A DNA stretch of 64,000 nucleotides from Collinsella aerofaciens (GTDB lineage Bacteria > Actinomycetota > Coriobacteriia > Coriobacteriales > Coriobacteriaceae): positions 186,001-250,000 of the forward strand of contig NZ_SPFO01000001.1 of NCBI RefSeq assembly GCF_005845035.1, in the 5' to 3' direction. A program made the translations under genes and the position numbers. The notes under the pieces are model-generated. The model worked only from the letters and a program-made list of their open reading frames with translations. It was not told the DNA's origin and made no database searches. This document shows, one piece after another, positions 16,981-28,660 of the stretch (the stretch's first letter is position 1; each line of letters opens with the position of its first letter).

Positions 16981-17049
16981 GGTAGGGCGCGGACGGCCAT
17001 TGCTGACGAGCTGTTCGCGCTCAACATCAACTACATACGCTGCGCCTTT

Positions 17050-17083
17050 GGCCCCGGCTCCATCGCGAGCCGGGGCCCTTTGT
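17050..17083 (+). terminator. Intrinsic terminator after the XdhD-like gene
   Basis: GGCCCCGGCT pairs with AGCCGGGGCC (10 bp, 8-nt loop), followed by a T-rich tail CTTTGTTT. It ends the first purine operon. Confidence 0.85.
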
Positions 17084-17090
17084 TTGGAGT

Positions 17091-17202
17091 GGAAACTGCG
17101 TCCCGGATTTGGCGCTCAGAACGGGACACGCTTTCCGGATGGGATGCTTGGCGGAAACTACGGCCCAGTTTTTGGCTCCAGAACGGGATGCATTTTCCGG
17201 AA
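17091..17202. repeat. Two 50-nt imperfect direct repeats
   Basis: Copies at 17091-17140 and 17153-17202 share GGAAACT at the left, CAGAACGGGA in the middle and TTTCCGGA at the right, offset by 62 bases. They lie between the terminator and the inverted repeat in front of the ATPase. Function unknown; they could be regulatory sites or insertion remnants. Confidence 0.7.
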
Positions 17203-17253
17203 CGGTCCACGTGCGGTGGTGTACCGCCCCTTTCGTGTGCGCCGCTTGTCGAA

Positions 17254-17309
17254 TTACGTTATAGCTAGCTATATTATAGGAAGGTATAATATAGCTAGCT
17301 ATAACGTAA
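17254..17309. promoter_or_regulatory. Perfect 25-bp inverted repeat upstream of ATPase gene
   Basis: Arms 17254-17278 and 17285-17309 are exact reverse complements separated only by GGAAGG. Each arm contains the internal palindrome ATAGCTAGCTAT. The element ends just before the ribosome binding site of the ATPase gene (AAAGGAAGGA), so it lies at the expected promoter or leader position. It is extremely AT-rich compared with its surroundings. It could be a high-affinity operator, a hairpin in the leader, or a mobile-element end. Confidence 0.88.
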
Positions 17310-17323
17310 AGGAAGGATGGTCT

Positions 17324-18715
17324 ATGTTTGTCGGAAGAACAGCGGAAATGTCCGAGCTCAATCGACTGTATGGCACGGACTCCTTTGAGATGCCTGTGAT
17401 TTACGGCCGCCGTCGTGTGGGTAAAACGCGCCTTATCACAGAGTTCATCCAAGGCAAGAAGGCTATTTACTTTCAAGCTCGTCGTACCAATGCGGAGGCA
17501 AACCTGCACGGCTTTAGCCAGGCGATACTTGCAGGCTCGGTTGGTGCTGCAGGCGTGTCGTTTCGTAGTTTTGACGAGGCGTTCGATGCATTGGTCACCA
17601 TGGCTCGAACGGAGCGTTTGATTGTCGTGATTGACGAGTATCCCTATCTCGCCCAATCGAATCCCGAGATCAGCTCGTTGCTGCAAGACAAGATCGACCA
17701 CTTATACAAAGAGACCAGGCTAATGCTGATCCTATGCGGCTCGTCTCTTTCGTTTATGGAGGAACAGGTGTTGGGCTACGAGAGCCCACTATACGGTAGG
17801 CGTACGGCCCAGTTTAAGATCATGCCGCTCGATTTTACGACGACCCTCGGGTTGTGGCAGAGCATGAGTCGCGAAGACGCTGCAGTTTGCTATGGTATGA
17901 CGGGCGGCATTCCTGCATATATCGAGAGAGTCGATCCTGCCGCATCGCTCAAGGACAACATCAAACGTCTTTTCCTTACTCCTACGGGCTATCTCTTTGA
18001 GGAGCCGAGTAACCTGCTAATGCAAGAGTGCCGCAATCCCGAGCAATATGATGCGATCGTGCAAGCAATTGCTCAGGGGCGCTCGAAGATCTCGGAGATT
18101 GCGAGCTCTACGGGAATCCCTGCGAGCAACGTAAAGAGCTATGTGGATAAGCTGGCGTCGCTTGGGATTGTCGAGCGCGAGCTGCCCCTAAACGAGACGA
18201 GCAATAAGCGAGCCGTGTATCTGCTGAGCGACCAGATGTTTAGGTTCTGGTACAAGTTTGTTCCGCAGAACATCGGGCTGATTCAAAACGATATGGCCGA
18301 GATGGCGTATAAGCGCATTGAGCCGCACGTATCGGATTACATGGGTACGGTCTTTGAGCTTATATGCAGACAATACGTGTACGAACTCGCGCGCGCGGGC
18401 GAACTTGGTGTGGTGCCGGCAACAGTTGGCCGTTGGTGGGGAACGGACAATCGGACGCGTACGCAGGAAGAGATCGATTTGATTGTCGACGACGGAGAGG
18501 GCGCGGCGCTCTTTGCGGAGTGCAAATGGCGTAACGAACCGGCAGGCGAGGATGTTCTGGAAAAGCTCGTGTACCGAAGCGAGCTCTTTAGGCGTCAGCA
18601 TAAAAGCTACGTGATCTTCTCGAAGCGTGGCTTTACGCAAGGATGTCAGGAAGCTGCGGCGAGCAGGGGAGATACCAAGCTGATTTCGTTTGCCGAGATG
18701 TGCGAGCGGAGATAA
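17324..18715 (+). CDS. Archaeal-type AAA ATPase with DUF234 nuclease-like C-terminus
   Basis: A 463-residue protein of the archaeal ATPase (STAND-like) family. Walker A is GRRRVGKT at 28-35 and Walker B is LIVVIDEYPYL near 100. A winged helix-turn-helix follows around 250-295 (ISEIASSTGIPASNVKSYV). The C-terminal DUF234 domain shows EIDLIVDD near 384 and FAECKW near 397, a PD-(D/E)xK-like nuclease pattern. ATG 17324 is supported by AAAGGAAGG seven bases upstream; the frame stays open far upstream but overlaps the hydroxylase gene. Biological role is unknown. It is preceded by a perfect 25-bp inverted repeat and starts the accessory island. Confidence 0.85.
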   Translation: MFVGRTAEMSELNRLYGTDSFEMPVIYGRRRVGKTRLITEFIQGKKAIYFQARRTNAEANLHGFSQAILAGSVGAAGVSFRSFDEAFDALVTMARTERLIVVIDEYPYLAQSNPEISSLLQDKIDHLYKETRLMLILCGSSLSFMEEQVLGYESPLYGRRTAQFKIMPLDFTTTLGLWQSMSREDAAVCYGMTGGIPAYIERVDPAASLKDNIKRLFLTPTGYLFEEPSNLLMQECRNPEQYDAIVQAIAQGRSKISEIASSTGIPASNVKSYVDKLASLGIVERELPLNETSNKRAVYLLSDQMFRFWYKFVPQNIGLIQNDMAEMAYKRIEPHVSDYMGTVFELICRQYVYELARAGELGVVPATVGRWWGTDNRTRTQEEIDLIVDDGEGAALFAECKWRNEPAGEDVLEKLVYRSELFRRQHKSYVIFSKRGFTQGCQEAAASRGDTKLISFAEMCERR

Positions 18716-18766
18716 CCAAGCGCGCTCTGATGTGATTGCTCGGAATGGGTCGCGCTAAGGATGCCA

Positions 18767-18882
18767 AGCGTAAAACCTACAATGAAAATGGCGTAAAAAC
18801 TACATCTGTCATGGCGTAAAAACTACATTGAAAGTAGCGTAAAATCAGCATTGAGAATGGCGTAATTTCGCATATCGCGTGA
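18767..18882. repeat. Five 23-bp iteron-like repeats
   Basis: The core GCGTAA starts at 18768, 18791, 18814, 18837 and 18860, an exact 23-base period. The fuller unit is GGCGTAAAAACTACATTGAA; the second and third copies match best and the last keeps only the GCGTAATTTCG part. The array fills the gap upstream of the DUF4143 ATPase gene and ends about 20 bases before its start codon. Exact phasing suggests cooperative protein binding on one DNA face or an origin-like iteron array. Confidence 0.9.
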
Positions 18883-18901
18883 TAGAGAGGGACGGCCGTC
18901 T

Positions 18902-20197
18902 ATGGATGCACCAAAGAGATTGACCCAAAAGGGATATAGGCCCCGGCTCATAGAGGAGCGCCTCGACACCCTTATGCGGGCGTTTGGCTGTGTGGAGATC
19001 AACGGCCCCAAATGGTGCGGCAAGACCTGGACGGCGCTCTCTCGCTCGGCGAGCGTCTCCAGGCTCGATGAGCCTGCGCAGCGTGCGGCGGCAGAGGTCG
19101 ACCCAAGCCTGGCGCTCATCGGCGATGCGCCACACCTGGTCGATGAATGGCAGGAGGTGCCCGAGGTTTGGGATGCCGCCCGGCGTTTCGTGGACGCGAG
19201 CGGCAACGAACGGGGGACACTTTTGCTCACGGGCTCGACCGCGCTCAAAAGCGAGGAGCGCAGCCATGTTCGTCATTCCGGCACGGGTAGGATCGCCCGT
19301 CTGTCAATGCGCCCCATGGCCCTGTGTGAGTCGGGCGACGGCGAGCCGCTCGTGTCACTGGCAAGCCTCTTTAAGGGCGAGGATTTTGCCCCTCAGCGTC
19401 GCGAGAGCACGGTGGATGACGTCGCCCGCTGGTGCTGCAGGGGCGGTTGGCCTGCAAATCTTGGGCTTTCGGAAGATCTTGCGCGAGAGACGGCAAGCCA
19501 GTACGTGCACTCGGTGCTCGACGTCAACGTGCTGGACGAGGGCATGTCGCCCGAGCTTGCACACGGCCTTTTGCGAGCTCTTGCCATGAACGAGAGCCAG
19601 GCTGTCACGTACAAGACGCTCGTAAAGGACGCCTCGTACGGTGAGGCGGGCCCCGACGAGAGGACCATCGCTGCGTACTTGGACCTCTTCAACAGGCTCA
19701 AGCTGACCGAGGACCTGTGCGGATGGGAGCCGCCCATGCGCTCGAAGGCCCGCGTTCGCGTGCGCCCCAAGCGCTACTTCTGTGACCCGTCACTTGCGGC
19801 GGCGTTGCTGGGGGCTACCCCTGAGCGGCTGCTTGGCGATATGCAAACGCTGGGGATGCTCTTTGAGAATCTCGTCCTGCGCGACGTGCGCGTGTTCCTT
19901 TCCACCTACGGCGGTGTCGACAACAGTGTCCATTATTTCCGAGATGAGAAGGGCCTTGAGGTCGATCTGATCGTTGAGCACGACGGGCGCTGGGGAGCCA
20001 TCGAGGTCAAGCTGAGTGATGCGAAAGCAGACGATGGAGCGAGAAATCTCAAGGCGCTGGAGAGGAAAGTGCTCTCCAATCCTGCCGCCCAGAATGCCGC
20101 GCCGGCGTTTTTGGCGGTCGTGGTTGGAAAGGGGAGCATTGCCTACACACGCGACGACGGCGTGGCGGTGATTCCCATGGCGGCACTTGGGGCGTAG
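18902..20197 (+). CDS. AAA_14 / DUF4143 family ATPase
   Basis: A 431-residue ATPase. Walker A is GPKWCGKTWT at 35-44, and the Walker B-like segment is HLVDEWQEVP near 80. LLLTGSTA near 107 fits the sensor position. The C-terminal DUF4143 domain ends in a nuclease-like pattern, GLEVDLIVEHDGRW then AIEVKLSD near 365 (D and ExK). It is unrelated in detail to the DUF234 ATPase just upstream although both combine AAA and PD-(D/E)xK-like parts. It starts at ATG 18902 after GAGAGGGACGG. It lies behind the 23-bp repeat array, which is likely its control region. Role unknown; many such proteins sit in mobile or defence loci. Confidence 0.85.
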   Translation: MDAPKRLTQKGYRPRLIEERLDTLMRAFGCVEINGPKWCGKTWTALSRSASVSRLDEPAQRAAAEVDPSLALIGDAPHLVDEWQEVPEVWDAARRFVDASGNERGTLLLTGSTALKSEERSHVRHSGTGRIARLSMRPMALCESGDGEPLVSLASLFKGEDFAPQRRESTVDDVARWCCRGGWPANLGLSEDLARETASQYVHSVLDVNVLDEGMSPELAHGLLRALAMNESQAVTYKTLVKDASYGEAGPDERTIAAYLDLFNRLKLTEDLCGWEPPMRSKARVRVRPKRYFCDPSLAAALLGATPERLLGDMQTLGMLFENLVLRDVRVFLSTYGGVDNSVHYFRDEKGLEVDLIVEHDGRWGAIEVKLSDAKADDGARNLKALERKVLSNPAAQNAAPAFLAVVVGKGSIAYTRDDGVAVIPMAALGA

Positions 20198-20228
20198 TGG
20201 TTTTGCGGGCGTGCCGTGCTTCCTTTAC

Positions 20229-20490
20229 CGAAAATCCATTTGGTAAACCAGATGCTCGCGGATAGAATAAAGTTGACGGCAGCCCAAGGGTGATAGCTGG
20301 GCAGCGCCGTTGCTTGGTCAAGAGGTCAGTGCCTTAATGGCAGCGACTTGTTATGCTTCGAATGCTGCTTGAGTGCCTCGGAAAGTTCGATAAGCGCCGT
20401 GAAGAGCGAGACCAAAGCAACCAAGAGCTCTACGAGCTCTGATGGGCCCGGGATGACCGCTGATTCAAGTCACCGGGCCTAAATCTTTTT
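20229..20490 (+). ncRNA. Candidate small transcript (promoter plus terminator module, copy 1)
   Basis: TTGGTA (20240) and TAGAAT (20263) are spaced 17 bases, predicting a start near 20275. The unit ends in a hairpin at 20441-20484 (GGGCCCGG pairs with CCGGGCCT, with inner TGAC and GTCA) followed by CTTTTTC. The product would be about 215 nt. A 21-nt block covering the -35 region and the exact 44-nt terminator are repeated downstream of the exonuclease (21439-21529), where the sequence in between has been lost. It may be a small RNA or a small-peptide gene such as a type I toxin. No known RNA family is recognised. Confidence 0.5.
20353..20442 (+). CDS. Candidate 29-residue peptide in the small transcript
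   Basis: An open frame from ATG 20353 reads MLRMLLECLGKF then a charged tail ending QELYEL. Its stop codon touches the start of the terminator hairpin, which is the usual layout of a short monocistronic gene. Codons are those favoured by neighbouring genes. Against it: no clear ribosome binding site, and the peptide is amphipathic rather than the single hydrophobic span typical of type I toxins. It is offered as a hypothesis only. Confidence 0.25.
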   Translation: MLRMLLECLGKFDKRREERDQSNQELYEL

Positions 20491-20652
20491 CATGCATTTG
20501 AATAGAGCGGGCAACTCTCTTGGGGCCGTCTGCATGACGTGTGCCTGGCGCATGGTATTGCGCCCCACTTTCATGTCCGTACGGGCGCCTATCCTTACGG
20601 CAATGTAGCCGCCTATGTAGCAAGCGGCAGGCAACGGAGAAAGGCCCTAACC

Positions 20653-21387
20653 GTGTCAGCTGAAAAGACGCCGTGTATCTCGGCTATCGATACGACGAAC
20701 TTTGCGCGCCAGATTGTGCTGGACTTTGAGTTTGCGCCGGTGCCAAAGCAGCGCCAGCGCCGTGGGCTGCGCAATGAGATTATTGAGGCCGGCGCCGTCA
20801 AGCTCGATTACCACGGCAACGTTATGGGTGAGTTCTCGCAGTTTGTGCAGACAGAATTTACCGAAGGCGTTGCGTATCCCGTCCGCGAGCTTACGGGGAT
20901 ATCGGCTGTGGACACCGCGATGGCCGATCCGCTCTATGTGGTGATCAAAAGGCTCAGCGATTGGATCGGTCGCTACTCCGCCCAGGTGGTTTGTTGGAGT
21001 GGGGCGGATCGTCGACAGCTTTTGACCGAGTGCCAGGCAAAGCACATCGACCTTTCCGCATTTCCTACGGACTGGGCCGACCTGCAGGCGTTTTACACCT
21101 CGATCATGGACGTGGGCAGCCACGGGTGTGTCTCTTTGAGTGACGCGGCGACGTGGTTTGGCATCGAGTTCGACGAGTCGACGGGTCACGCCCACAGCGC
21201 CCTAGCCGATGCGCGCGTGACCGCTAAGTTGCTCAAGCAGGTAATGGACGGGGGCTACCACGTGAGCCCACGTGCCCAGGAAGTCCGCCAGCGGTGGGGG
21301 ATGGGCGAGCGAGCCCAGACACGCCTTTCCAGCAAGTGCCCCGAGCTGAGCGATCTGCTGCTGAAGCTGAAGGCGGAGGGGAGATAG
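20653..21387 (+). CDS. DEDDh-type 3'-5' exonuclease
   Basis: A 244-residue RNase T / DNA polymerase III epsilon-like exonuclease. Motif I is LDFEF near residues 23-27, motif II includes the aspartate of CWSGADRRQ near 116, and motif III is HSALADARVT near 180 with the catalytic histidine and aspartate, as in the KapD/ERI-1-like branch. GTG 20653 is preferred because GGAGAAAGG lies upstream. It is bracketed by two copies of the same promoter-terminator module, an arrangement suggesting that the exonuclease was inserted or duplicated together with these modules. It may degrade RNA or DNA; the substrate is unknown. Confidence 0.85.
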   Translation: MSAEKTPCISAIDTTNFARQIVLDFEFAPVPKQRQRRGLRNEIIEAGAVKLDYHGNVMGEFSQFVQTEFTEGVAYPVRELTGISAVDTAMADPLYVVIKRLSDWIGRYSAQVVCWSGADRRQLLTECQAKHIDLSAFPTDWADLQAFYTSIMDVGSHGCVSLSDAATWFGIEFDESTGHAHSALADARVTAKLLKQVMDGGYHVSPRAQEVRQRWGMGERAQTRLSSKCPELSDLLLKLKAEGR

Positions 21388-21438: not shown

Positions 21439-21529
21439 CGAAAATCCATTTGTTAAACCTGCTAGCCCTGGGTACACTGCATATCGATGGGCCCGGGATG
21501 ACCGCTGATTCAAGTCACCGGGCCTAAAT
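21439..21529 (+). repeat. Promoter-terminator module, copy 2 (shortened)
   Basis: It repeats the 21-nt block at 20229-20249 with one difference and the 44-nt hairpin at 20441-20484 without any difference (here 21486-21529). TTGTTA (21450) and TACACT (21473) are again 17 bases apart. Transcription would begin where the hairpin starts, so only a very short RNA could be made. It looks like a deletion derivative of copy 1. Confidence 0.75.
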
Positions 21530-21687
21530 TCATATCTATAGGTTTAACCGAATGGCTGACAAGCCTACGGGACCTAAGATTCCATGGCATCGCGAATGGG
21601 CAGAACGTTGACTCTCGACTTCCCCTTCTATCTGCGTCAGATGGTCATTGGCTTCTGTTCCTTTGCTAGAATCAGAAGCACATTTGT

Positions 21688-21702
21688 ATTGCATCATGCA
21701 AT
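21688..21702. promoter_or_regulatory. 15-bp palindrome upstream of the RHH gene
   Basis: ATTGCATCATGCAAT is a perfect palindrome around one central base, 14 bases before the RHH start codon. RHH proteins usually bind short palindromes and repress their own operon, so this is a good operator candidate for the restriction-modification operon. Confidence 0.55.
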
Positions 21703-21716
21703 CGCGGGGGTTGCCA

Positions 21717-21923
21717 ATGAAATACGCCGAGCTTGTCGACGGAGAGGCCAAGACAGGCGAGCTCAAGAGCTTTCTTGTGGATGGCGAGAACGTTGCCGTG
21801 ACCATCCGCATACCTAAAAACATGCGTGATGCGGCGAAGGACGCCGCTGCGCTTTCTGGCATCAGCTTTACCTCGCTGGTAAAGATGAGCCTCATCGAAT
21901 ATCTGACCAAGAAGGAGAAATAG
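21717..21923 (+). CDS. Small ribbon-helix-helix-like protein leading the RM operon
   Basis: A 68-residue protein. The C-terminal half, NVAVTIRIPKNMRDAAKDAA then ISFTSLVKMSLIEYL, has the strand-helix-helix pattern of MetJ/Arc-type DNA-binding proteins and antitoxins. The stop is two bases before the hsdM start, so the genes are translationally linked. No toxin gene lies beside it. It probably regulates the type I operon, with the palindrome at 21688-21702 as operator. The start ATG 21717 follows only a G-rich GGGGG sequence. Function is inferred from fold pattern and position. Confidence 0.65.
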   Translation: MKYAELVDGEAKTGELKSFLVDGENVAVTIRIPKNMRDAAKDAAALSGISFTSLVKMSLIEYLTKKEK

Positions 21924-21925
21924 CA

Positions 21926-23722
21926 GTGGCGGATAGCGACGATCTTATCAAGGCCGTTGGCGCCAATATTCAAGAGAAGGCATCTCTCATTTGGAGTGCC
22001 GCCGATACCCTGCGTGGCCCCTACAAGCCTCATGAGTACGGCCTGGTCATCCTTCCTATGACCGTTATCAAACGCTTCCACGACTGCCTTGAGCCCACGC
22101 ACGATGCCGTTCTCGCCGCAGCTGAGAAATACAAAGCCTTTTCCGTGAAGGACGGCTTTTTGCGCGATGCCTCCGGCTACCCCTTCTACAACACCTCTAA
22201 GTTCACCTTCGAGACGCTCAAGGCCGACCCGGAGAACATCGAGGACAACTTCAAGGACTACATCAACGGGTTCTCGGACAACGTGCAGGACATCTTGGCA
22301 CGCATGAAGTTCGCCGACCAGATCGAACGCCTCTCCGACCCAGACGCCCCGCTGCTCTACCAGGTCGTCTGCGACTTCTGCAAGCCGCAGGCCGACATGT
22401 CGCCCGACAAGATCAAAGCTGTGGACATGGGCTACATCTTCGAGAACCTCATTCAGCGCTTCTCCGAGTCCTACGACGAGGACGCCGGCGCTCACTTCAC
22501 GAGCCGCGACATCGTGTACCTCATGACCGACCTGCTCATTCAGGCGGACCCGCACGTCTTCGACGGCGACCGCATCACGAAGACCGTCTACGACCAGACC
22601 ATGGGAACCTCGCAGATGCTCGGCTGCACCGAGGAGCGCCTGCGCCAGCTCGACGCCGAGGCCCGTGTAACCTGCTACGGTCAGGAGTTCAATCCCTTCA
22701 CTTTCGGCATCGCGAAGGCGAGTGCGCTAATTCGTGGCGAGGACGACGCCAACATGCGCTTCGGAGATACCCTCTCCGCCGATAAGTTCGATGGCTTCAA
22801 GTTCGACTACTGCATTTCCAATCCACCCTTCGGTGACCCGTGGAATCCTCAGGCCCCCTCGGTGGAGAAGGAATTCAAGACTGCCGGCGGTGGACGCTTC
22901 CCCGTTGAGAAGCTTCCCGCCAAGGGCGATGGTCAGATGCTCTTCGTGCTCAACGGCCTGTCTAAGCTCAAGGACGACGGCGTGATGGCGATTGTCCAGG
23001 ACGCGAGTCCGCTCTACAAGGGCAAGCCCGGCAGCGGCGAGGACAGCATCCGCCGATACGTGTTGGAGAACGACTGGCTCGACGCGATCGTGCAGCTGCC
23101 CTGCGACTCGTTCTACAACACCGGCATCGCCACCTACGTTTGGCTCTTCAGCAAGGCGAAGGCACCGGAGCATCGCGACCACGTGCTGCTCATCGACGCC
23201 TCCCGGTGCTTCGAGAAGCGCCGCAAGGGCATTGGCGACAAGAAGAACGACATCACCAAGTCCTGCCGCGACCTTATCGTCCAGGCGTACTCCGAGTATC
23301 GCGACGGCACTTGGACGGGCGCCGGGTCCAACGGACTAGAGGTCTCCGTCGAGGCGCGCCTGATGGAGACGGTCGAGTTTGGCTTCAACCGCGTTGCCGT
23401 GGAGAGCCCCGTCGTCGACGAGGACGGAGAACCCGTCCTTAACAAACGCGGGAAAATGCAGGCGGACAAGGCCAAGGAGGACACCGAGGACATCCCGCTC
23501 ACTCAGGACATTGACGCCTATATCGAGCGCGAGGTACGCCCGTACAACAAGTACGCCTGGGTGGACAAGAAGAAGACCAAGGTGGGCTACACCGTCCCGT
23601 TCACGCGCGTGTTCTACAAGTACGCCGAGCTGGAGCCAGCTGACGAGATCGCCAAGCGCATCCTCGAGCACGAGAAGACGCTCGAGAAGAGCCTCAAGGC
23701 CCTCTTCGGAGAGGTGCGTTAG
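21926..23722 (+). CDS. hsdM: Type I restriction-modification methyltransferase subunit HsdM
   Basis: A 598-residue N6-adenine DNA methyltransferase subunit. The N-terminal helical HsdM domain spans about residues 10-150. The SAM-binding region begins with HFTSRDIVYLMTDLL near 192, and catalytic motif IV is SNPPFGDPW near 298. GTG 21926 has AAGGAG upstream, inside the end of the RHH gene. With HsdS it methylates the recognition site, and with HsdR forms the restriction complex. hsdS starts three bases after its stop. Confidence 0.95.
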   Translation: MADSDDLIKAVGANIQEKASLIWSAADTLRGPYKPHEYGLVILPMTVIKRFHDCLEPTHDAVLAAAEKYKAFSVKDGFLRDASGYPFYNTSKFTFETLKADPENIEDNFKDYINGFSDNVQDILARMKFADQIERLSDPDAPLLYQVVCDFCKPQADMSPDKIKAVDMGYIFENLIQRFSESYDEDAGAHFTSRDIVYLMTDLLIQADPHVFDGDRITKTVYDQTMGTSQMLGCTEERLRQLDAEARVTCYGQEFNPFTFGIAKASALIRGEDDANMRFGDTLSADKFDGFKFDYCISNPPFGDPWNPQAPSVEKEFKTAGGGRFPVEKLPAKGDGQMLFVLNGLSKLKDDGVMAIVQDASPLYKGKPGSGEDSIRRYVLENDWLDAIVQLPCDSFYNTGIATYVWLFSKAKAPEHRDHVLLIDASRCFEKRRKGIGDKKNDITKSCRDLIVQAYSEYRDGTWTGAGSNGLEVSVEARLMETVEFGFNRVAVESPVVDEDGEPVLNKRGKMQADKAKEDTEDIPLTQDIDAYIEREVRPYNKYAWVDKKKTKVGYTVPFTRVFYKYAELEPADEIAKRILEHEKTLEKSLKALFGEVR

Positions 23723-23724
23723 CA

Positions 23725-24999
23725 ATGCGGGAGATGAAGGACAGTGGCGTCGAGTGGCTCGGCGAGGTCCCCTCGAGGTGGAAATTGCATAGGGCTAAGC
23801 GCCTGTTTAAACTCACCAACGACAGGGGCAACGATGACCTTACGCTTTTGGCAGCGACCCAGAAGCATGGCATGTGGCCTCAGGATAGGCTTGAAGGTGT
23901 TGTTCGCGTTAAGGACGATACCGACCTAAGTAGATTCCGTACGGTTCACAGGAATGATTTTGTAATCAGCCTGCGCAGCTTCCAGGGCGGCTTCGAGCGC
24001 TCCGACTTCGAAGGGGTCTGTTCGCCTGCTTACCAAACGTTTCGCTCAATAAAGCCAATCGACTATCAGTTCTATAAGTACTTGTTTAAGTCGCCGTCGT
24101 TTATTGACCATATGAATTCACTAACGTTGGGCATCCGCGAAGGCAAAACAATCAAGTTCGAGGACTTTGCAGCCCAAGTGCTACCCATGCCTCCCCTCGA
24201 TGAGCAGCGCCGCATCGCGGAATACCTGGACGATAAGTGCGCCGAAATCGACCGCGCCGTCTCCACCGCCGAGCAGTCTATTGAAGAGTACAGGGCGTAT
24301 CAAAACGATGTGGTTAAACGAGCCATTGTTTACGGTACGTGTAACGCTTTCAAAGTGAAAGAAAGCGGAGTCCCGGCGATAGGAAAAATGAATGCGAACT
24401 GGGGCCTCGTGATGGTGAAGCGTCTCGCTGTATTTCTCAACGGAGATAGAAGTGACAGCTACCCTTCAGGCGACGACATTCAAGAGGCTGGAATTCCGTT
24501 TATTACGTCTGGCGACCTCAATGGTCGTTATCTTCCCGACGTCTTTTCGAAGTACATTTCGCAAGATAAGTACGATTCACTTAAGGGTGTGAAGCTACGG
24601 CGCGGTGATGTCGTCTTTTGTTTGCGCGGAAGCGTTGGCAAATGCTCGTTGAACCGAACGGAGAACTGCGGCACGGTTGCTTCTTCGCTGACTGTCGCTA
24701 GACCCATTTGCTGCGCTCCCGAGTGGCTTAGCTATGCGCTTACGTGCTCATCTACCACCAATCAAGCCATGGCTACTGCCATTGGTGCAACGAGCGCAAA
24801 TCTTGCCGCTAACGTATTGGCTCGGGCGTTTGTGCCATTGCCCCCTCTCTCCGAACAGCGTCTCATTGCGGACTACTTGGACGAGAAGTGCACCCAGATC
24901 GATGCCGATATCGCTGCCAAGCAGGCTATCATCACCGACCTCAAAGCGTACAAGCAGTCGCTCATCTACGAGACCGTCACCGGAAAGCGGGAGGTGTAG
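23725..24999 (+). CDS. hsdS: Type I restriction-modification specificity subunit HsdS
   Basis: A 424-residue specificity subunit with two target-recognition domains. The first begins WLGEVPSRWKLHRAKRLFKL; each domain is followed by a conserved helical spacer, LPMPPLDEQRRIAEYLDDKC near 153 and LPPLSEQRLIADYLDEKC near 372. The two half-sites of the target are read by residues about 15-150 and 210-365. The target-recognition regions are more AT-rich than the flanking genes, as expected for exchangeable HsdS domains. The DNA target cannot be predicted. Confidence 0.94.
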   Translation: MREMKDSGVEWLGEVPSRWKLHRAKRLFKLTNDRGNDDLTLLAATQKHGMWPQDRLEGVVRVKDDTDLSRFRTVHRNDFVISLRSFQGGFERSDFEGVCSPAYQTFRSIKPIDYQFYKYLFKSPSFIDHMNSLTLGIREGKTIKFEDFAAQVLPMPPLDEQRRIAEYLDDKCAEIDRAVSTAEQSIEEYRAYQNDVVKRAIVYGTCNAFKVKESGVPAIGKMNANWGLVMVKRLAVFLNGDRSDSYPSGDDIQEAGIPFITSGDLNGRYLPDVFSKYISQDKYDSLKGVKLRRGDVVFCLRGSVGKCSLNRTENCGTVASSLTVARPICCAPEWLSYALTCSSTTNQAMATAIGATSANLAANVLARAFVPLPPLSEQRLIADYLDEKCTQIDADIAAKQAIITDLKAYKQSLIYETVTGKREV

Positions 25000-25002
25000 C
25001 CA

Positions 25003-25566
25003 ATGGGCGATTCCTATCGTCTTCCGGGCATCGTGCTGGAGGCGTCGTCGTCGAAAACGTGGGATATTGCCGTTTCCGAATGGCACGTGGTGGGGTGCCA
25101 TGACAATGGGAACACCTCCGGAGAGTGTCTTTGCGGGCATGAGGGCATCAGGTATGAGTTCACAATCAAAAATTCCGTCAACGGGAAAGAGCTCTCGCCA
25201 ATAGGCTCCACCTGCATCCTTAAGTTTGAAAATGATGAGCTCAAGAACGAGGTTGAGGGCTGGAAGGCAGCGATCAAGCTGCTGGAAGCCCTTGAGGCGA
25301 GGAAGCCGGGCGTGCGACTCGATGGCATGAACAGGGATCTGTTTTCTCGACGCCTCTACGCTTTCCTTTACGAGAGGGGCGCCTTTCCGGCCAATAGGTA
25401 CAACGGTTATGACGGTCGAAACGATTACGAGTTCATGGTGGATATGTTCAACAAGAGGACGGCACCGACGGAAAAGCAGCGCGCGAAGATGTACATGGTG
25501 CTAAACAAGAGCATATTTCCGTGGCTCGCTCTCTTTGGTCGCGAGTTGAGAGAGATGAGGTTGTAG
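25003..25566 (+). CDS. Unknown protein embedded in the type I RM operon
   Basis: A 187-residue protein I cannot name. The N-terminal part has a possible metal-binding pattern: GCHDNGNTSGECLCGHEG near 31-48 with cysteines and histidines, then IGSTCILKF near 67. The C-terminal half is charged and mostly helical (GRNDYEFMVDMFNKR, EKQRAKMYMVLNKS). It starts three bases after hsdS and ends one base before hsdR, so it is co-translated with the restriction subunits rather than a chance passenger. Possible roles are control of restriction, assembly, or an extra nucleic-acid-binding component; none is proven. Confidence 0.8.
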   Translation: MGDSYRLPGIVLEASSSKTWDIAVSEWHVVGCHDNGNTSGECLCGHEGIRYEFTIKNSVNGKELSPIGSTCILKFENDELKNEVEGWKAAIKLLEALEARKPGVRLDGMNRDLFSRRLYAFLYERGAFPANRYNGYDGRNDYEFMVDMFNKRTAPTEKQRAKMYMVLNKSIFPWLALFGRELREMRL

Positions 25567-25567
25567 C

Positions 25568-28500
25568 ATGCCTGCGCAGACAAAGGAAAAGAACCTCGAA
25601 GAGGACATCGAGTCGTTTCTCTGCTCGCCTGAGGGCGGTTTCTTCAAGTGCGACGACAGGCATTCGCTCCTCTACGTCGAGGACGGCACCTATCAGATGG
25701 TCGGCGGCGGCTACATGGAGCATCGTGACCGTGCGCTCGACGCCGCCACCCTGGTCAACTTCATCCAGACGACGCAGCCCAAGGCGTGGGATCGCTTCGA
25801 GCGCATGTGCAACTCCGATTCCACGGCGAAGTTCGCCAAGGTCTTCAACGACGCCGTCGACCGCCTGGGTATGGTCGCGGTGCTCAAACACGGCTTCAAG
25901 CACCGAGGAATTCCTTTCAAGGTCGTATTCTTCAAGCCGGAGAGCGGGCTTAACGAAAGCGCCGCCGACCACTATGCCAAGAACGTCTGCCGCTGCATCC
26001 GCCAGTTCCACTTCGCCGAGACGGGCAACCAGACCATCGACATGGTCCTGGACGTGAACGGCATCCCCCTGGTGGGCATAGAGCTCAAGGACCAGTTCAC
26101 CGGCCAAGACGTTGAGAATGCCATGCGCCAGTGGCGCGAGGACCGCGACCCGAGGTGTCGCTGTCTCAAGTTCAACACGCGCATGGTGGCCTTTTTCGCC
26201 GTCGATCTCGAAAATGTCTACATGACCACCAAGCTGGAGGGCGCGAAGACCTTCTTCCTGCCGTTCAACCAGGGCTCCGCCGGGGCGGGAAACGACGGCG
26301 GCGCCGGCAACCCCGCAAATCCCGACGGTTATGCCACGAGCCACTTGTGGGAGGTCGCCCTGCAGAAGGACAGCCTGCTCGATATCGTCAACAAGTTCCT
26401 CCACCTGGAGGTCAAGGAAGAGACAGAGCTCGATGCGCGCGGCAACGAGGTGAAGCGCAAGAAGGAGCGCATCATCTTCCCCCGTTACCACCAGCTCGAC
26501 TCCGTGCGTAAGGTCATCGCCGACGTGCGCGCGAACGGGACGGGCAAGAACTACCTCGTGCAGCATTCGGCGGGGTCGGGCAAGTCGAACAGCATCGCCT
26601 GGACGGCCTATCGCCTTGCATCCCTCTTTGTGGATGACACCCCGCTGTTCGACTCCGTGGTCGTCGTCACCGACCGCCGAGTGCTCGACAGCCAGCTGCA
26701 GGAGACCATCTCGGGCTTCGATCACGCCATCGGCTCGGTCGTGACCATCGGCAAGGACAAGACCTCGGCCGACCTGCGGGACGCCATCAACGGCGGCGCT
26801 CGTCTCATCGTCTCGACCCTTCAGAAGTTCCCCGTGATCTACGAGCAGGTCGAGAGCAAGGGTAAGCGCTTCGCCATCATCGTCGACGAGGCACATTCGT
26901 CCCAGACGGGAACGAGCGCGCTCAAGCTCAAGAGCGCCCTTGCCGACAAGCGCGACGCGCTCGAGGAGTACGCTGAGATCGAGGCGGAAGCCGAGGACGC
27001 CGCAGCCGATTGGGAGGACCAGCTCGCCGACGAGCTCGCGAGCCACGGCCGTCACAAGAACCTGACCTTCGTTGCCTTTACCGCCACGCCAAAGGAACAG
27101 ACGCTCGAGATCTTCGGCGATGAGTGGCCTGACGGGTCCTTCCACCCGTTCCACGTCTACTCGATGCGCCAGGCGATAGAGGAGGGCTTCATTATGGACC
27201 CCCTCGCCAACTACGTGAGTTATTCGGAGGCCGTCGAGCTCGCACGCACGGTCCCCGACAATCCCGACGTACCGAGCAGCCCCACGCTCAAGCTGCTCCG
27301 CAAGTATAAGGAGCTGCACCCCTATGCCCTCGGCCAGAAAGCCGAGATCATCGTGGAGACATTCCGCAATGTGACACGCACCAAAATCCGCGGCAAGGGC
27401 AAGATGATGGTGGTCACGGCCTCGCGCCTCGCGACGGTTCGCTACTACCACGAGATCAAGCGCTACATGCAGAAGAAGGGCTACGATGATATCGAGGTGC
27501 TGGTGGCGTTCTCGGGCGCCATTAGCGACCCGGCTGACGGCCCCGACGGTCCCGAGTACACCGAGCCGGTCATCAACGTCGGCCACGATGGACAACGCGT
27601 CGCCGAGAGCCAAACGAAGGCCGAGTTCCACAACTATGGGGACGTGCTTGTTGTTGCCGAGAAGTACCAGACGGGCTTTGACGAGCCGCTGCTGCACACG
27701 CTGGTGGTGGACAAGAAGCTCAAGGACGTGAAGGCCGTCCAGACGCTCTGCCGCGTCAACCGCATCCACCCGGACAAGGAGGACACCTACATCCTCGACT
27801 TCGTGAACAAGCCCGAGGACATCCAGAAGGCTTTCGAACGCTTCTACACCGAGACGTCGCTTTCCGAGCAGATTAACACCGACCTCCTCTATCAGGTGCA
27901 GACCGATATTCGCGGTTACGGGCTCTATGACGAGTCTGACATTGAGGCCGCTGCCGAGATAGTCTTCACCGATGGCAAGGGTAAATCGCAGAGCAACGTG
28001 CAGGGTAAGCTCGCGGCCGTTTTGAAGCCGGCGGTCGCGCGTTATAACGAGTTGAACGACGATGAACGCTATCAGGTTCGTCGCAAGGTGCGTAGCTTCT
28101 GCAAGTGGTACACCTACATCACCCAGATCGTGCGCATGTTTGACCGAGACCTGCATAAGGAATACGTGTATTTAAGCTATCTGCGCCACCTCCTCAAGGT
28201 CGAGAAGATCCCCGTCGAGGCTGTGGACGACAAGGTCGAGATGCGCTTCTACAAGCTCAAGCAGGAGTTCGAGGGCAGCATTTCGCTTGAGCCTGGCGGC
28301 GGCGTGCTCGATCCCGGTGGCGCGGCCAAGACCGTGACGCCCGATAAGAAGCGCGACCCGCTGCAGGTGCTCGTGGATAAGTTCAACGAGCAGTGGGCTG
28401 GCAACTTCACCGAGGGAGATCGTGTGGTTATCGACACGCTGTGGAAGCGTATCGCCGAAAACCCGCAGGTCGCCGACACCATCCGTCGCGACGGCAGACA

Positions 28501-28660
28501 GGTCTTCGAATCAAGCCTGCTGCCCAAGGTGTTCGATGAGGAGGCTCGCCGCGCCTATGTGGAGAACACGGACTCCTTTACCAGCCTCTTTGAGGACAGT
28601 GAGAAGTATCGCGCCATGATGAGCGCCATCGGGCAGCTGCTGGTTGAGAAATTCAAGTAG
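25568..28660 (+). CDS. hsdR: Type I restriction endonuclease subunit HsdR
   Basis: A 1030-residue motor and nuclease subunit. The N-terminal nuclease domain has VLDVNGIPLVGIELKD near 158-170 (PD-(D/E)xK type). The SF2 translocase follows: Walker A HSAGSGKSNS near 332, DEAH box VDEAHSSQTG near 440, motif III FVAFTATPK near 500 and the second RecA domain with KYQTGFDEPLLHTLVVDK near 700. The C-terminus is helical and would contact HsdM. It appears intact. It starts one base after the unknown gene, completing the order RHH-hsdM-hsdS-unknown-hsdR. Confidence 0.95.
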   Translation: MPAQTKEKNLEEDIESFLCSPEGGFFKCDDRHSLLYVEDGTYQMVGGGYMEHRDRALDAATLVNFIQTTQPKAWDRFERMCNSDSTAKFAKVFNDAVDRLGMVAVLKHGFKHRGIPFKVVFFKPESGLNESAADHYAKNVCRCIRQFHFAETGNQTIDMVLDVNGIPLVGIELKDQFTGQDVENAMRQWREDRDPRCRCLKFNTRMVAFFAVDLENVYMTTKLEGAKTFFLPFNQGSAGAGNDGGAGNPANPDGYATSHLWEVALQKDSLLDIVNKFLHLEVKEETELDARGNEVKRKKERIIFPRYHQLDSVRKVIADVRANGTGKNYLVQHSAGSGKSNSIAWTAYRLASLFVDDTPLFDSVVVVTDRRVLDSQLQETISGFDHAIGSVVTIGKDKTSADLRDAINGGARLIVSTLQKFPVIYEQVESKGKRFAIIVDEAHSSQTGTSALKLKSALADKRDALEEYAEIEAEAEDAAADWEDQLADELASHGRHKNLTFVAFTATPKEQTLEIFGDEWPDGSFHPFHVYSMRQAIEEGFIMDPLANYVSYSEAVELARTVPDNPDVPSSPTLKLLRKYKELHPYALGQKAEIIVETFRNVTRTKIRGKGKMMVVTASRLATVRYYHEIKRYMQKKGYDDIEVLVAFSGAISDPADGPDGPEYTEPVINVGHDGQRVAESQTKAEFHNYGDVLVVAEKYQTGFDEPLLHTLVVDKKLKDVKAVQTLCRVNRIHPDKEDTYILDFVNKPEDIQKAFERFYTETSLSEQINTDLLYQVQTDIRGYGLYDESDIEAAAEIVFTDGKGKSQSNVQGKLAAVLKPAVARYNELNDDERYQVRRKVRSFCKWYTYITQIVRMFDRDLHKEYVYLSYLRHLLKVEKIPVEAVDDKVEMRFYKLKQEFEGSISLEPGGGVLDPGGAAKTVTPDKKRDPLQVLVDKFNEQWAGNFTEGDRVVIDTLWKRIAENPQVADTIRRDGRQVFESSLLPKVFDEEARRAYVENTDSFTSLFEDSEKYRAMMSAIGQLLVEKFK

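What the first reader, a model, noticed from the sequence alone, without database searches (positions are those of the whole stretch)
18767..18882. Five iteron-like 23-bp repeats upstream of the DUF4143 ATPase
The core GCGTAA occurs five times with an exact 23-base spacing, directly before the gene. Such phased arrays are typical of cooperative binding or replication iterons. Two neighbouring but unrelated AAA/nuclease-like ATPases each having a striking repeat control region suggests a common logic, perhaps that the ATPase recognises its own repeats.
Basis: partly seen in the sequence, partly recalled or inferred. Interest (0 to 1): 0.7.

Follow-up and report, generated by a model that had tools for sequence, protein, structure and literature searches.

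The report
Private repeat arrays before ATPase–nuclease genes
The five phased 23-base repeats are real and are one example of a 23-base repeat array found just before almost every gene of this ATPase–nuclease subfamily in distantly related bacteria and an archaeon, each gene with its own repeat sequence, so the protein very probably binds its own promoter; this gives a direct handle on one of the most common untested candidate anti-phage genes.

Summary
In detail: GCGTAA starts at 18768, 18791, 18814, 18837 and 18860 (exact 23-bp steps), unmatched in 2000 shuffles. The gene (18902-20197) encodes an AAA_14 / winged-helix / PD-(D/E)xK protein, PADLOC candidate PDC-S01, with a STAND-like ATPase fold. 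Of 104 homologue upstream regions (several bacterial phyla, one archaeon), 97 are significantly periodic, 90 of them at 23 bp or its double; 430 control regions of the same loci give one such case. The repeat sequence differs from gene to gene and, where searched, occurs only at its own gene. In at least 19 mainly Clostridial loci the last unit lies between the -35 and -10 boxes at one fixed phase. Other subfamilies have other pitches: a second DUF4143 subfamily 32-33 bp, the neighbouring DUF234 ATPase (PDC-S27) 15 bp plus a perfect 25-bp inverted repeat; a third DUF4143 subfamily mostly lacks arrays. Best explanation: a private multi-site operator through which the ATPase-nuclease controls its own expression. 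Replication iterons are unlikely. Binding is inferred, not shown; covariation with the winged helix is weak. I found no paper describing such arrays in the open-access library searched. PDC-S01 is reported as the fourth most common prokaryotic defence, experimentally unvalidated.

The parts
18768..18790 (+). repeat unit 1
18791..18813 (+). repeat unit 2
18814..18836 (+). repeat unit 3
18837..18859 (+). repeat unit 4
18860..18882 (+). repeat unit 5, degenerate after GCGTAA; must overlap or adjoin the core promoter (inference: only about 20 nt remain before the ATG)
   Evidence: no sigma-70 consensus found here
18902..20197 (+). gene of AAA_14 + DUF4143 protein, 431 aa (PADLOC PDC-S01)
18902..19456 (+). 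ATPase domain (residues 1-185): Walker A GPKWCGKT, Walker B VDEWQ; G40 K41 D81 E82 invariant in 90 homologues
19550..19780 (+). winged-helix region (residues 217-293), proposed DNA reader
   Evidence: secondary structure of the AF2 model; the archaeal ATPase matches span residues 6-304
19841..20194 (+). PD-(D/E)xK-type nuclease domain (residues 314-431); E353, E368 and K370 invariant, D355 nearly so
   Evidence: family assignment also in PMC12988326
17254..17309 (+). control region of the neighbouring DUF234 ATPase: perfect inverted repeat, 25-bp arms, with 15-bp periodicity
17324..18715 (+). neighbouring ATPase_2 + DUF234 gene (PADLOC PDC-S27)

Best explanation
The array is a private multi-site operator of the downstream gene. 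The gene product, a STAND-like ATPase with a winged-helix domain and a C-terminal PD-(D/E)xK nuclease domain, binds the 23-bp direct repeats cooperatively, one protomer (or protomer pair) per unit. Because the array runs into the core promoter, a filled array excludes RNA polymerase and keeps the nuclease at a low level; nucleotide state or a trigger would release it. Shown: the array, its conservation at a fixed pitch, its position on the promoter, its gene-private sequence, and the domain make-up. Inferred: binding by the gene's own product, cooperativity, repression rather than activation, and the trigger.
For: Periodicity at 23 bp or its double in 90 of 97 significant homologues out of 104; after thinning to under 60% protein identity, 29 of 32 significant and 28 of them at 22-24 bp or double. 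Control regions in the same loci: 1 of 430. Each locus has its own unit sequence on a shared + strand pattern, TAAAAT-like tract plus variable box (5.9 bits against 2.96 +/- 0.07 for permuted columns). The repeat core is found only at the gene's own array in the six array-bearing genomes searched, apart from one single-mismatch hit in the window's genome that is at the control level. In at least 19 loci, mainly Clostridial, a TTGnnn-17-TAnnnT promoter lies at the same phase, with the last unit between the two boxes. Unit similarity follows protein similarity (Mantel rho 0.44, 0 of 500 permutations). Confident model (pLDDT 95) with a winged-helix arrangement and ATPase + winged-helix matches to STAND proteins.
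Against: No binding data. The Mantel correlation could reflect shared descent of adjacent sequences. Residue-level covariation is weak: only the wing region 267-294 stands out (p 0.009 before correction for seven regions), the recognition helix does not. No sigma-70 consensus promoter is recognisable at the window locus itself. In seven homologue regions no significant array was found. Repression was chosen over activation from box position only.
Confidence: 0.72

Rival explanations
1. The array is an activator platform: like MalT on its boxes, the ATP-bound STAND protein multimerises on the repeats upstream of -35 and recruits RNA polymerase, so the system is positively autoregulated once triggered.
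For: STAND fold; MalT multimerisation drives cooperative binding to MalT boxes (PMC4381067); most units lie upstream of the core promoter.
Against: In the Clostridial loci the last unit lies inside the -35/-10 spacer, with near-consensus hexamers that do not look activator-dependent.
Confidence: 0.15
2. A different DNA-binding protein of the host reads the array and controls this gene.
For: Binding by the own product is not shown; covariation with the winged helix is weak.
Against: The repeat core is private to one gene in the genomes searched, differs between paralogues of one genome, and keeps the same pitch across phyla, which a separate regulator would not explain simply.
Confidence: 0.08
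3. Replication or maintenance iterons of an integrated plasmid or mobile element.
For: Direct repeats of about two helical turns; the array plus gene is present or absent as a block between strains; a few plasmid copies exist.
Against: Chromosomal in the genomes examined; 26 of 72,556 plasmid records and 7 viral contigs carry a relative; no Rep protein or origin; the array overlaps the gene's own promoter.
Confidence: 0.03
4. The repeats are a non-functional tandem duplication.
For: Unit number varies between strains, 3 to 6.
Against: Same pitch upstream of homologues with unrelated repeat sequences, 1 of 430 in control regions.
Confidence: 0.02

Closest known systems
STAND transcription factors (MalT of E. 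coli; IniR of mycobacteria)
   Same: STAND-type ATPase with a DNA-binding domain; for MalT, multimerisation enables cooperative binding to several boxes in a promoter (PMC4381067); IniR has an SSO1545-like ATPase domain and binds the iniBAC promoter (PMC5760070).
   Different: Those carry a sensor domain and a C-terminal HTH and act on other operons; here the winged helix is internal, the C-terminus is a nuclease, and the only array found in the genome is the gene's own.
PADLOC phage defence candidate PDC-S01 (and PDC-S27)
   Same: The window protein matches PDC-S01 models (best E 1e-62) and the neighbour PDC-S27 (5e-62); ATPase fused to PD-(D/E)-X-K (PMC12988326).
   Different: The PDC description does not include the promoter arrays, and the arrays are subfamily-specific: 23 bp, 32-33 bp, 15 bp, or none.
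Arch_ATPase structures 2qen (PABY2304) and 2fna (SSO1545)
   Same: Best structural matches, Z 15.0 and 13.6 over about 250 residues covering the ATPase and following domain.
   Different: The alignment stops at about residue 304; the nuclease domain lies outside it. Sequence identity 14-15%.
Plasmid iterons
   Same: Direct repeats of about two helical turns just before a gene (general knowledge of iterons).
   Different: Chromosomal, no initiator protein or origin, overlaps a promoter, sequence private to each gene.
SARP-LAL regulator operators (PimR)
   Same: ATP-binding regulator, cooperative binding to short direct repeats in one target promoter (PMC5930380).
   Different: Heptamers 11 nt apart at another gene's promoter; here 23-bp pitch and own promoter.

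Membership tests
PADLOC PDC-S01 | match to the PDC-S01 profile over most of the protein | tested here: met
   E 9.8e-63, residues 11-429 of 431
PADLOC PDC-S01 | anti-phage activity | not testable with these tools
   validation stated to be pending for most PDCs (PMC12988326)
STAND / archaeal-type ATPases | NOD-type ATPase fold followed by a winged helix | tested here: met
   2qen Z 15.0, 2fna Z 13.6, CED-4 Z about 12, NLRs about 11-12; Walker motifs invariant
STAND / archaeal-type ATPases | trigger-dependent multimerisation | not testable with these tools
   -
PD-(D/E)xK nuclease | conserved E/D...ExK active-site pattern | tested here: met
   E353, E368, K370 invariant and D355 nearly invariant in 90 homologues; the domain was not searched alone by fold
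Autoregulatory operator | binding sites overlapping the gene's own core promoter | tested here: met
   fixed phase against -35/-10 in at least 19 loci, mainly Clostridial; not recognisable by consensus in the window itself
Autoregulatory operator | bound by the product of the gene | tested here: inconclusive
   unit and protein similarity correlate, but residue covariation is weak
Plasmid iterons / replication origin | located on a replicon with an initiator gene | tested here: not met
   chromosomal; the gene product is a STAND-like ATPase-nuclease, no Rep domain
Structured RNA element | match to a known RNA family in the region | tested here: not met
   no Rfam match up to E 1 in 17000-20700

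The most novel reading that the evidence does not exclude
A widespread class of STAND-like ATPase-nucleases assembles on a private DNA array of subfamily-specific pitch (15, 23, or 32-33 bp), and the array is not only an operator but the platform that holds or arms the nuclease, so that loss of array occupancy (for example through phage takeover of transcription or DNA) is the trigger of a defence response.
Probability: 0.15. Interest if true: 0.9.

Novelty: new variant of a known kind. Interest (0 to 1): 0.7.

Why it matters
PDC-S01 is reported as the fourth most common defence system across prokaryotes, with experimental validation pending for most such candidates (PMC12988326). A conserved, gene-private array that marks the probable DNA target of each protein makes binding, specificity and regulation testable at once, supplies many natural protein-site pairs for decoding winged-helix specificity, and gives a marker that separates functional subfamilies inside the broad DUF4143 and PDC groups.

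Tried and rejected
Replication iterons: rejected, see rivals. RNA element: no Rfam match up to E 1, and in the Clostridial loci the array is upstream of the -10 box, hence not transcribed from that promoter. Palindromic operator for the DUF4143 gene: 1 of 35 promoters exceeds all shuffles, so direct repeats only. A universal DUF4143 array: rejected, the GARQVGKTTL-type subfamily has 5 significant of 30 with no common period. Locating specificity residues by covariation: weak, not conclusive. PDB relatives by sequence: none with E up to 1. Literature on DUF4143 with repeats: one irrelevant paper; no paper on 23-bp repeats with AAA ATPases; subscription journals and preprints not covered. In one search some minus-strand loci were printed in the wrong orientation; corrected from then on.

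Full report
Observation. The window lies in a Collinsella-like genome (contig C11 of G000; closest named homologues are Collinsella aerofaciens). Five copies of GCGTAA start at 18768, 18791, 18814, 18837 and 18860, exactly 23 bases apart, on the + strand, and no dinucleotide shuffle in 2000 reaches the self-similarity of the region; no other place in the window does (TRF agrees). The fifth unit is degenerate. The ATG of the next gene is at 18902.

Gene. The 431-residue product matches AAA_14 and DUF4143 and the PADLOC phage defence candidate PDC-S01 with E 1e-62. AlphaFold2 with 90 homologues gives a confident model (pLDDT 95): ATPase 1-185, winged-helix region about 217-293, and a C-terminal domain with the E353, D355, E368, K370 pattern of PD-(D/E)xK nucleases. 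The best structural matches of the first 300 residues are the archaeal ATPases 2qen and 2fna (Z 15.0 and 13.6), followed by CED-4 and plant NLRs, i.e. a STAND-like ATPase.

Comparative test. I took the 230 bases upstream (plus 10) of 104 homologues from the genus and from GTDB genomes. With all periods from 10 to 60 allowed, 97 regions are significant at p 0.01 against dinucleotide shuffles; the best period is 23 in 76, 46 in 14, 24 in 3, 22 in 1. Two of the 104 are remote paralogues of 25% identity (one positive). Thinned at 90, 70 and 60% protein identity, 71 of 76, 41 of 45 and 29 of 32 are significant, almost all at 22-24 bp or double. Controls in the same loci: far upstream 0 of 100 at 23/46, downstream 1 of 101, inside the gene 0 of 104, upstream of other genes 0 of 125. 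Homologues on viral contigs: 6 of 6 at 23 or 46. The hosts include Actinomycetota (Collinsella, Olsenella, Bifidobacterium, Mobiluncus, Sanguibacter), Clostridia and other Bacillota, Bacteroidales, Spirochaetes, Synergistaceae, a Dehalococcoidia MAG and a Methanomassiliicoccaceae archaeon.

Unit anatomy. Each locus has its own unit, for example GGCGTAAAATCGAAA (Bifidobacterium kashiwanohense), AAAAGTTCGGAGTGAA (Bacteroidales), AAATCTATCGGATT (Clostridia). Aligned by circular shift, 76 units share a + strand pattern, a TAAAAT/GAAAAT tract and a variable box often ending in GGAAT(G), with 5.9 bits against 2.96 +/- 0.07 for column-permuted units. In the genomes searched the repeat core occurs only at the gene's own array, apart from one single-mismatch hit in the window's genome that does not exceed the reversed-pattern control. 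Paralogues in one genome have different units (L050 and L062; L044 and L092; L018 and L039).

Promoter. In at least 19 loci, mainly Clostridial, a TTGnnn-17-TAnnnT type promoter lies at one fixed phase, the -35 box at the start and the -10 box just after the end of the last unit, so that the variable box of the last unit is inside the spacer (the pooled Rayleigh test over all phyla is also significant, p about 0.001). The 23-bp pitch equals the -35 to -10 start-to-start distance. In high-GC Actinomycetota, including the window, no consensus promoter is recognisable; only about 20 nt separate the last unit from the ATG, so the promoter must overlap the array (inference).

Other subfamilies. A second DUF4143 subfamily (GARQTGKTW type, own-genome paralogue L007) has 17 of 28 significant regions, 16 of them at 32-33 bp. 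A third (GARQVGKTTL type) has 5 of 30 and no common period. The neighbouring DUF234 ATPase (PDC-S27) has best period 15 in 13 of 14 family promoters, 9 of these at p 0.02 or better, together with palindromes; in the window a perfect 25-bp inverted repeat at 17254-17309. So array pitch is a subfamily property: 15, 23 and 32-33 bp.

Alleles. In related strains the block from just before the array to the stop codon region is missing while the flanks remain (L134-L136). Others keep the array next to a decayed gene. Alleles with an intact gene have 5 or 6 units, decayed ones 3 or 4.

Mechanism. The simplest reading is a multi-site operator bound cooperatively by the gene's own product, probably through the winged helix, which keeps a potentially harmful nuclease low. 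Unit similarity follows protein similarity (Mantel rho 0.44, 0 of 500 permutations), but neighbouring sequences share descent, and residue-level covariation points only weakly to the wing 267-294. Repression is preferred to activation because of the last unit's place between -35 and -10. MalT offers the nearest worked example of a STAND ATPase that binds repeated boxes cooperatively (PMC4381067). Successive sites at 23 and 33 bp are rotated by roughly one sixth of a turn beyond two and three helical turns, which would suit a spiral assembly; this is speculation.

Known or new. The open-access library holds one paper that mentions DUF4143, unrelated, and nothing on such arrays. PDC-S01 is reported as the fourth most common defence across prokaryotes, with validation pending for most PDCs (PMC12988326). 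The arrays as a subfamily-wide feature therefore appear undescribed, within the limits of the library; autoregulation by tandem operators is a known kind of device.

Noticed in passing
17254-17309: Perfect inverted repeat (25-bp arms, 6-bp loop, TTACGTTATAGCTAGCTATATTATA) just before the DUF234 ATPase; the family's promoters have 15-bp periodicity and diverse palindromes.
   Followed up: partly
17091-17201: Two copies (spacing 62) of a GGAAACTGCGTCCCGGATTTGGCGCTCAGAACGGGACACGCTTTCCGGA element; the same kind of element fills the site in strains that lack the DUF4143 gene (L127, L134-L136), so it looks like a dispersed Collinsella intergenic repeat.
   Followed up: partly
20441-20484 and 21486-21529: Identical 44-nt sequence GATGGGCCCGGGATGACCGCTGATTCAAGTCACCGGGCCTAAAT twice, about 1 kb apart, flanking the RNase_T exonuclease gene; also a 24-nt near-repeat TACCGAAAATCCATTTGGTAAACC at 20226 and 21436.
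   Followed up: no
L007 (own-genome paralogue) and L177-L203: Second DUF4143 subfamily with arrays of 32-33 bp pitch.
   Followed up: partly
21648-28660: Genes downstream look like a type I restriction-modification locus (methyltransferase-, specificity- and helicase/nuclease-type ORFs by eye; no domain search of these was run), close to the two PDC candidates; possibly a small defence cluster.
   Followed up: no
L044 and L092; L050 and L062: Two paralogous ATPase-nucleases in one genome with different repeat units, natural pairs for specificity-swap tests.
   Followed up: partly
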